Origin: Phytopythium helicoides
Taxonomy: Eukaryota > Oomycota > Peronosporomycetes > Pythiales > Pythiaceae
Direction: 5' to 3'
Assembly: GCA_024867545.1 (NCBI GenBank)
Contig: JANFNE010000017.1
Span: 397,001 to 461,000, forward strand
Length of the DNA stretch: 64,000 bases
Shown here piece after piece: positions 1,317 to 25,370 of the stretch; positions within the stretch are counted from its first letter, which is position 1, and every line of letters starts with the position of its first letter. The notes beneath the pieces were generated by a model. The model saw nothing but the letters and a program-made list of their open reading frames with translations. It made no database searches and was not told the origin of the DNA. A program made the translations under genes and the position numbers.

Positions 1317-2405
1317 ATGAAGCTCTTCACCCCCGTCGTTCTCGCATTTGCTGCGCTCGCCACCGTCAACGCCACTCTCATGGTGCGCCAAGAAGCAGAT
1401 GTCAGCACCTGTATGCTTACTGGAACATACAAGCTCGGCACCGACGTCTCGAACTGCAAAATCATTACAATCGGACCGCTCACGGTTCCCGGCGATGTGA
1501 CCCTCGACCTTACCAACGTCCAGTCCGGCGCTACCATCGAGTTCACGGGAACTACGACGTTCGGCGAGGCGGAGGGACAGGGACCGCTTGTGAAGCTCAC
1601 TGGCACGGACCTCACTGTCAAGGGAAGCGGAACCCTCGACGGCCAGGGATCGTGGTACTGGAACAATTACAAAGCCAACTCGAAATTCACCCGTCCAGTT
1701 TTCTTCCGCATGGAGAATGTCATCGGCTCGACTGTGTCAGACTTCACCATCTTGAACTCGCCCTACCGCACCTTCAGCATCATCAACAGCCAGAAAACTG
1801 TGGTCAATAATATTACGCTTGACTCGAAAGCGGGCGATCCCATCGCCAAGAACACGGACGGCTTCGACCTCAGCGGCAACACGGGGGTCAACATCACCAA
1901 CAACAAGGTCCACAACCAGGACGACTGCCTCGCCATGCAGTCGAGCACCACGACTCTCTTCGCCGGCAACACGTGCAATGGCGGCCACGGTATCTCGATC
2001 GGCTCGATTGGTGGTGCGTCCGTCTCGTCCGACACCACGGTCAACGGTCTCACGGTCTCGAACAACAATGTCATCAACAGCGTCAACGGTATCCGCATCA
2101 AGACCATCACGGGAGACTCCGGCACTGTCGAGAACATCAAGTACATTGGCAACACTCTCGCCAACGTGCAGAATGCGATTGTGATCCGTGGCGACTACTC
2201 CAAGGCCCAGCAGGGTTACACGGGTTCGGCCACGAGCTTGGTGACTATCAAGGGCGTCACCATCAGCGGACTATCGGGCAATGCCACCACGCTGTACCAA
2301 ATTCTCGTCAACGAGGCCGACGTCTCGGACTGGTCGTTCTCGGGTATCACAGTGAAGACCTCGTCGACGGGCACCTGCTCGGGCCAGCCCAGCGGTATCT
2401 GCTAA
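1317..2405 (+). CDS. Secreted endopolygalacturonase (GH28)
   Basis: Pectin-degrading glycoside hydrolase family 28 enzyme, 362 residues, no introns. The first 19 residues are a signal peptide (MKLFTPVVLAFAALATVNA), so it should be exported and act on homogalacturonan in plant cell walls. All four GH28 active-site motifs are present in order: NTD at residues 179-181, DD at 202-203, GHG with His224, and RIK at 260-262. The middle is the expected right-handed beta-helix of short repeats (NITNNKV, LTVSNNNV). The ATG is chosen because it begins the signal peptide; an oomycete initiator lies about 90 bp upstream. Length is normal for oomycete and fungal enzymes and the reading frame is intact. Endo rather than exo activity is inferred from the motif set and compact length. 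Confidence 0.95.
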   Translation: MKLFTPVVLAFAALATVNATLMVRQEADVSTCMLTGTYKLGTDVSNCKIITIGPLTVPGDVTLDLTNVQSGATIEFTGTTTFGEAEGQGPLVKLTGTDLTVKGSGTLDGQGSWYWNNYKANSKFTRPVFFRMENVIGSTVSDFTILNSPYRTFSIINSQKTVVNNITLDSKAGDPIAKNTDGFDLSGNTGVNITNNKVHNQDDCLAMQSSTTTLFAGNTCNGGHGISIGSIGGASVSSDTTVNGLTVSNNNVINSVNGIRIKTITGDSGTVENIKYIGNTLANVQNAIVIRGDYSKAQQGYTGSATSLVTIKGVTISGLSGNATTLYQILVNEADVSDWSFSGITVKTSSTGTCSGQPSGIC

Positions 2406-2940
2406 GCAACATGAACCGTTGGATGGCAACGCAATGCAGAGCGAGGCATGCATACTCATAGAGGGGAGTGGCGTGAGTTTGTGGCACAGTGCTGTGGAGG
2501 ATTGAGAGCACCAAAGCCACCGAGCCATAGACTGTTGTAGCGAAGGTTGTACTGGCTTAGCTGAGTATCAGTATCAGCCAGATCATTCAGTTGAAGCCAT
2601 CTTCAACTTGCTCAACAGTTGGTTCCTCAGTGCACGAACTATTTTTTTTTTTTCGTTAGGTAAGAACCATGAGGCCGAACTGTGGCGCCCCTCAAAATGC
2701 TCGTGCTCAGGGGTCTCTTTCAGCGACAGAAGCAGCATGTGGTGCTTTAGCCAGGAGCCTGCAAGTCAAAGCGAGCTCGTTCAGCAACGCCGAGCTCGAC
2801 TTCAGCAGCCGACGTGAAATCCTCAATTGGCATCGACGACCCATATACAAGCGAGAGCCATCCCTTTTCAAATGACTAGCTCTTCAAGCAGCACGACAAA
2901 ACTCTACAGTATGCTGAAGTGGACGTGAACAGCGATCCTC
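2406..2940. other. Intergenic, nothing recognised
   Basis: This is the 3' flank of the polygalacturonase. It holds a T11 run near 2641 and two short overlapping open frames with no recognisable domain. Confidence 0.5.
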
Positions 2941-2944
2941 GGCG

Positions 2945-3760
2945 GCCCTCAACACCGCGGGCTTTGATACTACAGACTCGTTCGACTCCACCGAAAAGAG
3001 TGTAGTACGTGCCTGAATCGGGTCGTCGCCGACTTTTTTTATAGTCGGCAACATTGTGGTCGTGGGCGGCATTCCGAGAGGGTGGATGTGGGCGATGACA
3101 ACTTTCGTGCTGTGGAGAGCGGAGTCCTGGGTATTCTGAGCGGCTCTGCGTCTATCAGCACATTCGGTTCTTTGGCAATGTATTTCGAACTAGCAATGGG
3201 GTGAGTATGTCGTGCGTTACTAGCTCTTTGAACATCGTATGGACATACTGAGTAGCGTGAGTTCGGCCTCGGGCGTGTGTGTTCGTGGCTAGTGCAACCA
3301 CCACGGGGTCTGAAGCGGTGAATCGCCACTACGCCGCCAGCGATCCTGCTGCTCTTTCTACTGTATCATAGTTCTGTGGGCGGTACCATCAGTTGTGGAA
3401 AGTCGTCGCATGGTTGGAAGATTGCTTTCAGCTCTGGCGGCGCGAGCTCTAAGTTTTATGGGCGGGATCGGCGAGGAAAGTGGCCGATGGCCGATGACGT
3501 GCAACTCGTGGGTGGTTCTAGGAGTCACACAGGAAGCATCATCTCGGTGTCAGGCGGCTCTGGAAATAAGTTTGGAGCGAGCGTGACGGTGACCGAGCGG
3601 TGTCGGCAGCACGAGTATCGGCGACGCGCCGTTCGGGTCGTCGTCTGCGGCGGCGTCTAGCACAAGTGTGCGCTCGAGTGGGGTCGTGTCGGTGCGTCGG
3701 TGTCTACGGCCGGGTTTGTGACTATGAACAGTGAAGGCACGAAGGAATGAGCTGTGACGG
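2945..3760 (+). pseudogene. Possible relic of a Gly/Ser-rich repeat extracellular protein
   Basis: Across three plus-strand frames, broken by stops, fragments keep a repetitive Gly/Ser/Thr texture: GFDTTDSFDSTEK near 2960, SGSASISTFGSLAM near 3140, and VGGSRSHTGSIISVSGGSG followed by NKFGASVTVT near 3520-3590. This resembles the 'SGSISLSTG' beta-repeat proteins common in oomycete secretomes. No continuous frame longer than 94 codons and no start or signal peptide was found, so it is at best a decayed copy. It could also be chance composition. Confidence 0.28.
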
Positions 3761-22816: not shown

Positions 22817-23943
22817 TTAGTTAAAGAGCATGGACACCGACTTTTTGGAGTGGATGTTGCGGATCGCCTGCGCGACGAGCGGGGCGATATCCAGCTGCAC
22901 GATCTTCTCGTTGCCGACGCAGCTCTCGGGCAGCGGCGTCGTGTTGACGACCACGACCTCCTTGAGGGCCGAGTTCTTGATCTTCTCGCTGGCCGTGCCG
23001 TTGAAGAGACCGTGGGACGCAAAGGCGTAGACGTTGCGGGCGCCGTGGTCGACCAGGTGCTGCGCGGCCTTGCACAGCGTGCCGGCCGTGTCGATCATGT
23101 CGTCGACAATGATGCAGTCAGAGCCCTCAACGGTGCCGACGAGGTCCATGCGGTCGATCTCGTTGGCCTTGATGCGCTGCTTGATGATCATGGCGAGACC
23201 CGTGTTGGGCAGGCCGTGCTTGCCAACCAGCCACTCGCGAACTTCTTGGCGCGCGCGACGCCGCCGGCGTCCGGGGACACCACGACAGGGTTCACGAGCT
23301 CGTGCGTGCCGAAGTAGGTGACGCCGACCAGGCCGCCGTCAAGGTTGTCGACGGGCACGCGCGGGCCGAAGAAGCCCTGGATCTGTCCGCAGTGAGGTCG
23401 ACGGCGATGACGCGGTCGACGCCCATGGCCTCGAGCAGGCGCGCGACGTCGGCGGCCGAGATGGGCACGCGCGCGGCCATCTTGCGGTCCTGGCGCGCGT
23501 AGCCGTAGTAGGGGATGACGGCGGTGATGCGGCGCGCCGAGGAGCGGCGCATGGTGCTGACCATGAGCAGCAGCTCCATGAGGTTCTCGTTGACCGGCAC
23601 GCACGTGGGCTGCACGATGTACACGTCCTTGCCGCGCACGTTCTCGTGCACCATGACGTTGACTTCCCCGTCCGCGAAGCGCTCGACCGTGATCTTTACC
23701 CAGCTCGACGCCCACGAGCTTGGCCACGTTGCTGGCCAGCTCCGGGTTGGCGTTGCCGCTGAAGATCTTGAGGCCGTTCAGCTTGGGCTGCTTGGCCACG
23801 ATGGCCGGCCGAGGGTACGCCGACGGATCCTCCTGCGCCAGCGCCGCACGCGGCTGCGCCCACGACCCCAGCGCGACGCCCGCGGCCGCGCAGCCGAGCG
23901 CAGCGGCCGTCAGCCGCGCGGGACGTACCAGCTGCCGGAACAT
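22817..23943 (-). CDS. Ribose-phosphate pyrophosphokinase (PRPP synthetase)
   Basis: Makes PRPP from ribose 5-phosphate and ATP for nucleotide, histidine and tryptophan synthesis. Conserved segments are all present: [59 protein letters not shown](H)[13 protein letters not shown], and the PRPP-binding loop [15 protein letters not shown]. They lie in three frames. The shifts are an extra A near 23690 (AAAG for AAG), a missing C near 23380 and a missing C near 23237, each restoring the family consensus if undone. The first 55 residues ([20 protein letters not shown]...) are an extension rich in Arg and Ala that looks like a mitochondrial presequence or signal anchor. Divergent from anthranilate synthase II, with a shared motif-rich promoter. 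Confidence 0.92.
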
Positions 23944-24617
23944 GTCGAAGAGGGCGGCGGCGGCGACGATTGAGAAGTGTGAAGCACAACCACGAACCGC
24001 GGGGAACGGTACAGCGTACCACCCTTGCATGCACAGGAGAGGTTCGCAAACACTCGATTGCCAAGGCATGACTTCCAGGTAGTCCACCAAATGACGTCCA
24101 GGAAGTCATCGTATCGGCACCCCCCTATTTTTGACACCCATAGCGAATTCCGCTACCTTGTTCTGGCATTTCACGAATCTGACCACCACTTTTGAAACCA
24201 GCCAATCAGAGGCCGCCAAAATTCCTAGCATTTCTAACACCATTTCTAGCATCGACTACCCGGAAGTCATATGTGGACTGCGGAATCGGCACCTGGTACC
24301 ACAATATAAATTACTTCGTCTGCGATACCCCCAGTGCGCAGAACCCATGAGTGTATACTGAAAGATTACGAAGTATAGTATACAACCATAGTTTTAGCCA
24401 ATGGGAGGCCTCTATCATGGACTACCCGGAAGTCAAAACTCTGGTAGTGGCTACCAGGTAGTCAAATTGTACAGGAAGACGGTACCGGTACCAAGCCGGG
24501 GGCACTTTGTACCGAGCCTTCGGTTCGTGGGACCTTCCGTGTACCTGCACCACAAGAACGTGCAGCGCCTGCAGCTTTGATGGCCCCACACGACACGCCA
24601 CTTTACGAAAAGGGACC
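23944..24617. promoter_or_regulatory. Shared divergent promoter, PRPP synthetase / anthranilate synthase II
   Basis: 674 bp between two opposite start codons with no coding potential. It contains five copies of a 15-bp quasi-palindrome (annotated separately), CCAAT boxes at 24202-24206 and 24398-24402, and KpnI-like GGTACC palindromes near 24294 and 24481-24492. No classical oomycete initiator was recognised. Confidence 0.6.
24070..24463. promoter_or_regulatory. Five-copy 15-bp quasi-palindromic motif cluster
   Basis: Consensus GACTWCCNGGWAGTC, an inverted repeat of GACTWCC around one central base. Copies: 24070-24084 (GACTTCCAGGTAGTC), 24093-24107 (GACGTCCAGGAAGTC), 24254-24268 and 24420-24434 (both GACTACCCGGAAGTC), and 24449-24463 (GGCTACCAGGTAGTC). 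Symmetry and repetition suggest sites for a dimeric DNA-binding protein controlling one or both flanking genes. Function is inferred; the repetition is seen directly. Confidence 0.65.
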
Positions 24618-25370
24618 ATGGTGGCGACGCGCGTGCTGCTCGTGGACAACTACGACTCGTTCACGTACAACATCTACCAGGTGCGCGGGGCTTTTTTTTT
24701 ATGCGGTGGCGCGCGCGCGCGCGTAGAGGTGACCCGGACTGACGCGATATTTTTTGCGTTGGAGCAGTACATGGCGCAGCTGGGGGCGGATGTGGAGGTG
24801 CGCCGCAACGACCAGATCACGCTGGACGAGATCCGCGAGATGAACCCAGACCGCATCATGATCTCGCCCGGCCCTGGATACCCCAAGGACGCGGGCGTGT
24901 CCTGCGATGTCATCCGCGAGTTCGCGGGCAAGATCCCCATCGCTGGCGTCTGCCTCGGTGCGGCTGGCTCCCTGAGTTTGGACGCGATGGTGGGGGTCGC
25001 CTCGCTGACGGTATCGCTCTCTTCTGCGCTGGATGCAATGCAGGCCACCAGGCCATGTTCGAGGTGTTTGGCGGCAAGGTGGACCACGCGGGCGAGATCG
25101 TGCACGGCAAGCAGTCCGTGATGGTGAACGACGGCAAGGGATTGTTCAAGGGCATGCCGGCCGAGTTCAAGGCCGATCCGCTACCACTCGCTCGTGGGAC
25201 TCCCCGAGACGCTGCCGGAAGACCTCGAGGTGACGGCCACGGTCAAGGGCACCAACATGATCATGGGCGTGCGGCACAAAAAGTACAAGGTCGAGGGCTT
25301 CCAGTTCCACCCCGAGAGCATCCTGACCGAGGACGGACTCAAGCTCATCCAGAACTTCCTCGAGATGTGA
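24618..25370 (+). CDS. trpG: Anthranilate synthase component II (glutamine amidotransferase)
   Basis: Class-I glutamine amidotransferase that hydrolyses glutamine and passes ammonia to the anthranilate synthase large subunit, the first step of tryptophan synthesis. Exon 1 gives [17 protein letters not shown]; exon 2 gives [16 protein letters not shown] and [13 protein letters not shown]; exon 3 gives the nucleophile loop [13 protein letters not shown], then IVHGK. The catalytic His-Glu is in [14 protein letters not shown]. Two introns (24679-24768 and about 24958-25048) have GT-AG ends; removing the second joins C-L-G to H-Q. A single extra base near 25178 separates KA from [21 protein letters not shown]. 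Length (about 195 residues) fits a stand-alone subunit rather than a fusion. Start chosen at the ATG preceding [13 protein letters not shown]. Confidence 0.9.

What the first reader, a model, noticed from the sequence alone, without database searches (positions are those of the whole stretch)
24070..24463. Five copies of a symmetrical 15-bp site in the promoter shared by PRPP synthetase and anthranilate synthase II
GACTWCCNGGWAGTC occurs five times within 394 bp (24070, 24093, 24254, 24420, 24449), always with a single central base between the two half-sites. The two central copies at 24254 and 24420 are identical. It lies between a gene that makes PRPP and a gene that opens the tryptophan pathway, which consumes PRPP one step later. 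A shared dimeric regulator coordinating precursor supply and amino-acid synthesis would explain the number and symmetry. I know of no described oomycete regulator with this site.
Basis: partly seen in the sequence, partly recalled or inferred. Interest (0 to 1): 0.78.

Follow-up and report, generated by a model that had tools for sequence, protein, structure and literature searches.

The report
Genome-wide palindromic DNA site, repeat-borne here
The symmetrical 15-base DNA site between these two genes is real and occurs dozens of times across this organism's genome, probably as the landing site of an unknown paired protein, but part of this cluster lies in a scattered repeat and nothing found here ties it to control of the tryptophan pathway.

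Summary
The five sites are there: three match GACTWCCNGGWAGTC exactly, two (24093, 24449) differ by one base. The word is far from chance: in this 49.06-Mb genome it occurs 48 times exactly against 0 for the reversed control, and 243 against 37 with up to one mismatch. The one-base spacer is special: 48 sites, against 9 for spacers 2-9 together, control 6. At 27 of 48 sites the flanks match no other fetched site; 22 of these also stand alone. In 26 such loci the symmetry extends outward (AWT-GACTWCC-N-GGWAGTC-AWT) and sites avoid open reading frames. A dimeric sequence-specific binding protein is the best explanation.

The PRPP/tryptophan story is not supported. Window 24068-24270, holding sites 1-3, is a copy of a dispersed repeat found elsewhere, in whole or part, at 74-94% identity. 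TrpE-like, TrpD, TrpC and HisG loci carry no site with 0-1 mismatch. Annotated neighbours share no pathway. In five repeat copies not chosen for an exact site, the right palindrome is within one mismatch in one.

Verdict: a real long palindrome that I found in no held text, partly spread by repeats; function inferred, cross-species conservation untestable here.

The parts
24070..24084 (.). site A, GACTTCCAGGTAGTC, exact; left end of the dispersed repeat; about 127 bp upstream of the PRPP synthetase ATG
24093..24107 (.). site B, GACGTCCAGGAAGTC, one mismatch, 23 bp from site A
24254..24268 (.). site C, GACTACCCGGAAGTC, exact; right end of the dispersed repeat
24420..24434 (.). site D, GACTACCCGGAAGTC, exact; outside the detected repeat; about 198 bp upstream of the trpG ATG
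24449..24463 (.). site E, GGCTACCAGGTAGTC, one mismatch, 29 bp from site D
24068..24270 (+). copy of a dispersed repeat of about 200 bp with inverted 17-nt ends; matched elsewhere in the genome, in whole or part, at 74-94% identity
   Evidence: (I2)
24254..24392 (+). stretch that matches C24:30870-30999 at 80%, so the segment between sites C and D is also repeated at least once
24200..24214 (+). CCAAT-box-like block AGCCAATCAGAGGCC inside the repeat
   Evidence: (D5)
24396..24410 (+). second CCAAT-box-like block AGCCAATGGGAGGCC, just before site D
   Evidence: D5
22817..23943 (-). PRPP synthetase gene, with frame changes in the assembly
24618..25370 (+). TrpG-type glutamine amidotransferase gene, with a probable intron at about 24682-24767 and frame changes

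Best explanation
GACTWCCNGGWAGTC (extended AWTGACTWCCNGGWAGTCAWT) is the binding site of a sequence-specific DNA-binding protein that acts as a symmetric dimer with rigid geometry. 48 perfect sites are scattered through the genome, mostly outside open reading frames, where the protein would act as a transcription factor or chromatin factor. The same site is carried, often in pairs 22-23 bp apart (start to start), by short dispersed repeats; one copy sits between PRPP synthetase and trpG and holds sites A-C. Shown: the word, its enrichment, the spacer preference, flank symmetry, avoidance of ORFs, and the repeat. Inferred: a protein, dimerisation, transcriptional action, and any effect on these two genes.
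For: 48 exact sites on 29 contigs against 0 reversed control and 243 against 37 with up to one mismatch. Spacers of 2-9 give 9 sites in all, control 6. Freeing position 5 and its partner gives 64 sites, of which 48 are A/T on both sides. Flanks of 27 of 48 sites match no other fetched site, and 22 of these also have no second site (up to 2 mismatches) within 300 bp. Among 26 of the 27 (the window site D left out) the next bases outward are biased symmetrically: T 26 of 52, A/T 38 of 52, A 24 of 52. 5 of 26 lie in an ORF of at least 150 aa against 875 of 1500 random window positions (p=7e-5). 19 of 34 adjacent site pairs up to 80 bp apart are 22 or 23 bp apart (recounted). The repeat is shown.
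Against: No protein, binding or expression data, and no cross-species test. The lean to upstream regions (12 of 26 within 600 bp against 256 of 1500, p=6e-4) is not significant once only positions outside ORFs are compared (12 of 21 against 256 of 625, p=0.18), nor within 300 bp (6 of 26 against 175 of 1500, p=0.11); so promoter bias as such is unproven. In five repeat copies not chosen for an exact site the right palindrome is within one mismatch in 1 of 5. A genome-wide pair pattern was not enriched over its control (17+11 against 33+1) and solo sites show no convincing partner at 22-23 bp, so the phased pairs are largely a property of repeat arrays. The annotated neighbours form no coherent regulon. 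The flank comparison was among fetched loci only; of its 22 solo loci, L016 and L020 show short similarity to the arrays beside the site.
Confidence: 0.52

Rival explanations
1. The palindrome is a mobile-element sequence: the end or transposase-binding site of one or more MITE-like families. Solo copies are worn-down remnants, with no host regulation.
For: 21 of 48 exact sites have flanks similar to another fetched site locus or to another part of their own. The window copy has inverted 17-nt ends that contain the palindrome. Arrays lie in or beside at least two different repeat families. The palindrome is within one mismatch in only 1 of 5 unselected repeat copies.
Against: At least 20 solo sites have flanks unrelated to other fetched loci, and the flank-unrelated set shares an extended symmetric preference. 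No convincing flanking direct duplication in 26 loci: 4-8 bases 0, 3 bases 1, 2 bases 4. Decay to remnants would not be expected to leave exactly this word perfect while all else vanishes (inference).
Confidence: 0.29
2. A dedicated dimeric regulator coordinates PRPP supply and tryptophan synthesis through this shared promoter.
For: Five sites in one intergenic region: A-C 127-311 bp from the PRPP synthetase ATG, D and E 198 and 169 bp from the trpG ATG. No other place in the list of 48 holds three exact sites within a few hundred bases. The window amidotransferase is likely TrpG, since a PabA-PabB-type fusion exists separately.
Against: Sites A-C lie in a dispersed repeat. TrpE-like, TrpD, TrpC and HisG loci have no site at 0-1 mismatch. 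ORFs near other sites include P450, aquaporin, sulfate and amino-acid transporters, kinases, PSME4, MTHFD and others.
Confidence: 0.05
3. The site has a chromosomal role (insulator-like, replication or pairing site) and no gene-specific regulatory role.
For: Scattered over 29 contigs, mostly outside ORFs, near genes without evident common function; promoter bias beyond ORF avoidance is not significant. Long, information-rich palindrome.
Against: Only 48 exact sites in 49 Mb. No direct evidence of any such role.
Confidence: 0.1

Closest known systems
Binding sites dispersed by transposable elements (for example CTCF sites spread by mouse SINE B2; recalled, the one listing was not read)
   Same: A host-factor-like site occurs both alone and inside many copies of a short repeat.
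Predicted promoter motifs of Phytophthora infestans (PMC3597505 passages; PMC3520976 abstract, section 17 and passages; PMC3599244 passages)
   Same: Over-represented, palindromic words of the kind those studies treat as transcription-factor sites.
   Different: The 103 motifs of PMC3597505 are 6-9 nt long and five are palindromes; this one is 15-21 nt. Letter fragments of it gave only unrelated or partial matches, such as AAGTCA inside examples of motif-3 of PMC3520976. Six exact variants are in 0 held papers. Logos and supplements were not readable.
Heat-shock-factor sites of P. infestans (PMC11267843, outline, Results parts 1-3 of 4, passages)
   Same: TTC...GAA inverted units; when W is T the core reads TTCCNGGAA.
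   Different: The P. infestans sites named there are ungapped or have gaps of 1-2 nt; here the gap would be 3, and A replaces T in 56 of 96 half-sites.
GCN4/AP-1-type bZIP sites (TGACTCA, reported for PITG_04908 in PMC11267843)
   Same: Contains TGACT half-sites facing each other.
   Different: The halves are separated by WCCNGGW and do not overlap by one base, and the inner bases are fixed as well.
MITEs (definition recalled)
   Same: Short, dispersed, with inverted ends (window 24068-24084 / 24254-24270).
   Different: No transposase partner or target duplication shown; each end is itself a palindrome; many sites lie outside any repeat detected among the fetched loci.

Membership tests
Transcription-factor binding site | over-represented above a matched control | tested here: met
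   48 against 0 exact; 243 against 37 with up to one mismatch
Transcription-factor binding site | fixed internal geometry | tested here: met
   spacer 1: 48 sites; spacers 2-9: 9 sites in all, control 6; spacer 0 was not tested
Transcription-factor binding site | positional bias to promoters | tested here: inconclusive
   avoids ORFs (5 of 26 against 875 of 1500, p=7e-5); upstream lean 12 of 26 against 256 of 1500 overall, but 12 of 21 against 256 of 625 (p=0.18) outside ORFs; mechanical ORF calls, background from the window only
Transcription-factor binding site | conservation in related species | not testable with these tools
   no relatives of G000 are held
Transcription-factor binding site | bound by a protein and affects expression | not testable with these tools
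   needs an experiment
Tryptophan/PRPP regulon | site upstream of other Trp/His genes | tested here: not met
   loci of TrpD, the TrpE-like gene, TrpC (two copies) and HisG hold no site at 0-1 mismatch; upstream coverage estimated at 0.8-1.3 kb; the PabA-PabB-type locus has one 1-mismatch site 1.46 kb past the domain match and its promoter was not covered; purine genes not tested
MITE-type element (window 24068-24270) | dispersed multicopy short repeat | tested here: met
   20 further matches in the genome besides itself, some two per place and several covering only the right part
MITE-type element (window 24068-24270) | terminal inverted repeats | tested here: inconclusive
   17-nt arms 94% complementary in the window copy, but copies differ at the left end
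MITE-type element (window 24068-24270) | target-site duplication | tested here: inconclusive
   looked for by eye in the alignment, none seen; around palindromes of 26 flank-unrelated loci none of 4-8 bases
Heat-shock element | TTC/GAA units with the spacings named for P. infestans | tested here: not met
   A in place of T in 56 of 96 half-sites breaks TTC/GAA; spacings from PMC11267843
GCN4/AP-1 site | TGACTCA (or TGACGTCA, recalled) | tested here: not met
   TGACT halves lie 7 bp apart with fixed inner bases

The most novel reading that the evidence does not exclude
This lineage has an undescribed dimeric DNA-binding protein, perhaps a domesticated transposase, with an unusually long (about 21-bp) palindromic site, and short repeats carrying phased pairs of that site have been rewiring its network, including insertion into the shared promoter of PRPP synthetase and trpG.
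Probability: 0.3. Interest if true: 0.62.

Novelty: new member of a known kind. Interest (0 to 1): 0.4.

Why it matters
The oomycete promoter motifs in the texts I read are short. A 15-21-bp palindrome with 48 perfect places is a sharp bait for identifying a factor. The mix of solo and repeat-borne sites would give a stramenopile example of mobile DNA spreading regulatory sites, a process I know mainly from animals and plants (recalled).

Tried and rejected
Pathway-specific regulon: rejected on the Trp/His loci and mixed neighbours.

Transposon footprint: looked for flanking direct duplications in 26 loci. 2 bases: 4 (expected 1.8); 3 bases: 1 (expected 0.5); 4-8 bases: 0. Not supported.

RNA gene in the repeats: Rfam over 18 of the 51 loci held then found only a U5 snRNA in L040, on the minus strand, so the array lies downstream of it. 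Not a common feature.

CCAAT box as an obligate partner: present near many sites, but a 5-mer is expected often in 415 bp; not pursued.

Genome-wide phased pairs: the pattern was not enriched over its control (28 against 34). The control's excess on one strand was not inspected.

Solo sites with a hidden partner: for 22 sites, offset 23 was the second lowest of 106 offsets (z -2.7; the lowest was 38) and offset 22 was average; not convincing.

Promoter bias: looked significant at first but not once ORF positions are excluded. I lowered the best explanation from 0.55 to 0.52 and raised the mobile-element rival from 0.27 to 0.29 for that.

A scan for an oomycete-type initiator (consensus recalled) gave 7 matches with 3.3 expected, and 4 of 100 shuffles reached 7; inconclusive.

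Literature: the listings showed no report of this site; one search is the only search for its letters across all held papers. Supplements and logos could not be read.

Full report
What is there. The interval between the PRPP synthetase ATG (minus strand, 23943) and the trpG ATG (plus strand, 24618) is 674 bp. It holds sites A 24070, B 24093, C 24254, D 24420 and E 24449. A, C and D match GACTWCCNGGWAGTC exactly; B and E have one mismatch. In the window the exact word occurs 3 times and in none of 100 shuffles. Gene identities hold: Pribosyl_synth and ribP_PPkin matches for the minus-strand gene, GATase and (below cut-off, on a broken gene) trpG_papA-type matches for the plus-strand gene. The genome has a separate GATase + Anth_synt_I_N + Chorismate_bind fusion (PabA-PabB type; L055), so the free-standing amidotransferase in the window is more likely TrpG than PabA (inference). 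Both window genes change frame in this assembly.

Is it chance? No. The window lies in a genome of 49,062,832 bases in 100 contigs. The exact word occurs 48 times, on 29 contigs, the reversed control 0; with up to one mismatch 243 against 37. The one-base centre is special: spacers 2 to 9 together give 9 sites, control 6 (spacer 0 was not tested). Position 5 prefers A/T: freeing it and its partner gives 64 sites, of which 48 are A/T on both sides. About 3 kb around each of the 48 exact sites was fetched (L001-L045; three of these are overlapping window stretches, and L024, L035 and L040 hold two sites, tallied).

Repeat or regulator? Both. With the site masked, the 150-bp flanks of 21 of 48 exact sites match another fetched site locus or another part of their own, and 27 do not; 22 of the 27 also have no second site (up to 2 mismatches) within 300 bp. 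This comparison was within the fetched set, not the whole genome. Two of the 22 (L016, L020) have short similarity to the arrays beside the site; other array flanks that hit solo loci L011, L015, L017 and L033 did so on the site itself, and one hit L034 about 180 bp from its site. The window's sites A-C fall in the repeat class: 24068-24270 matches places on C50, C8, C5, C24, C6, C39, C7, C11, C64 and C57 at 74-94% identity. The C50, C7 and C24:2138114 matches span nearly all of it, C5, C39 and C11 most of it, and the rest only the right part without sites A and B. The window copy has 17-nt inverted ends, each containing the palindrome, and an internal AGCCAATCAGAGGCC block kept, with small changes, in the aligned copies. 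The stretch 24254-24392 also matches C24:30870-30999 at 80%, while 24393-24616, with D and E, found only itself in the DNA search. Arrays of sites also lie beside a second, hairpin-like repeat with CCAAT boxes in L014, L019, L028 and L040.

The sites with unrelated flanks are the best evidence for a binding protein. In 26 such loci (the 27 less window site D), outward positions show T in 26 of 52, A/T in 38 of 52 and A in 24 of 52 (p 7e-7, 2e-5, 5e-5), so the site extends symmetrically to about 21 bp. 5 of 26 lie in an ORF of at least 150 aa against 875 of 1500 random window positions (Fisher p 7e-5). 12 of 26 lie outside ORFs and within 600 bp upstream of one against 256 of 1500 (p 6e-4), but among positions outside ORFs this is 12 of 21 against 256 of 625 (p 0.18), and within 300 bp 6 of 26 against 175 of 1500 (p 0.11). 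So ORF avoidance is clear and promoter preference is not. For 16 repeat-class loci, 3 lie in an ORF and 6 within 600 bp upstream. ORF calls were mechanical and the background came from the 64-kb window only.

Spacing. Among adjacent sites (up to 3 mismatches) within 80 bp in L001-L051 and the window (L052-L059 left out), 19 of 34 are 22 or 23 bp apart, about two helical turns, as expected of dimers side by side. But a genome-wide pattern for such pairs was not above its control (17+11 against 33+1) and solo sites show no clear partner, so phasing belongs mainly to the repeat arrays. In five repeat copies found by similarity and not chosen by an exact site, the right palindrome is within one mismatch in 1 of 5 (a sixth such locus, L050, matches another stretch and was not in that alignment); it is not visibly protected there.

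The pathway idea. TrpD (C22), two chorismate-binding genes (TrpE-like on C16, by exclusion; PabA-PabB type on C68), TrpC (C38 and C93, 97% identical and perhaps two haplotypes) and HisG (C35) were found. Scanning their loci gave no exact site, and one 1-mismatch site 1.46 kb past the domain match in the PabA-PabB locus. Coverage upstream of each gene was roughly 0.8-1.3 kb by estimate, and the PabA-PabB promoter was not covered. Pfam on 59 ORFs near other sites, on either side and not always downstream of the site (the PabA-PabB ORF not counted), gave a hit for 22 and none for 37. The hits are mixed: PSME4, amino-acid, sulfate and nucleotide-sugar transporters, aquaporin, P450, kinases, MTHFD, mitochondrial carrier, SHQ1-like, DnaJ, GDPD and others. 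I see no sign of a Trp, His or PRPP regulon.

Mechanism. I think a symmetric dimer binds this word and acts on nearby genes or chromatin, and that repeats carried extra copies into this promoter. Symmetry, spacer preference, flank preference and ORF avoidance are shown; the protein, its dimerisation and any effect on transcription are inferred. The nearest rival is that the word is a transposase-type site and solo copies are remnants.

Comparison. P. infestans motif studies list words of 6-9 nt (PMC3597505, passages), CCAAT and initiator elements (PMC3599244, passages), 19 conserved motifs (PMC3520976, abstract, section 17 and passages), and protein-array specificities for 73 factors (PMC11267843, outline and Results parts 1-3 of 4). 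Fragments of the word, looked up in these four and in PMC10031896 (passages), gave only short or partial matches, and six exact variants appear in none of 5.39 million held papers. Logos and supplements were not readable, so a match to one of the 73 specificities is not excluded.

Noticed in passing
window 22817-23943 and 24618-25370: Both flanking genes change reading frame in a way that looks like single-base assembly errors (for example near 25170 in trpG and 23705 in PRPP synthetase; read by eye), besides a probable intron in trpG.
   Followed up: partly
L014:1636-1727, L019:1524-1711, L028:1730-1845, L040:1307-1423: A second short repeat of about 110 bp with long inverted arms and CCAAT/ATTGG on the arms, with copies of the 15-bp site (0-3 mismatches) close by.
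   Followed up: partly
L028, L040, L014, L019, L029, L039, L041; genome-wide: A second recurrent word, ACACGGTG, occurs near several of the arrays; its longer form AAAACACGGTGNG has 16 exact places genome-wide against 2 for the reversed control.
   Followed up: partly
L056 and L057 (C93:41238-44510, C38:282166-285435): Two TrpC regions are 97% identical over 3.3 kb, so the assembly may keep some haplotype duplicates.
   Followed up: no
L055:1-2403: Fused amidotransferase and chorismate-binding gene of PabA-PabB type.
   Followed up: partly
L040:1622-1740: U5 spliceosomal RNA gene on the minus strand, about 80 bp from an exact site.
   Followed up: no
L009:3-1013 and 1495-3015: Two tandem amino-acid transporter genes with an exact site at the boundary between them.
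   Followed up: no
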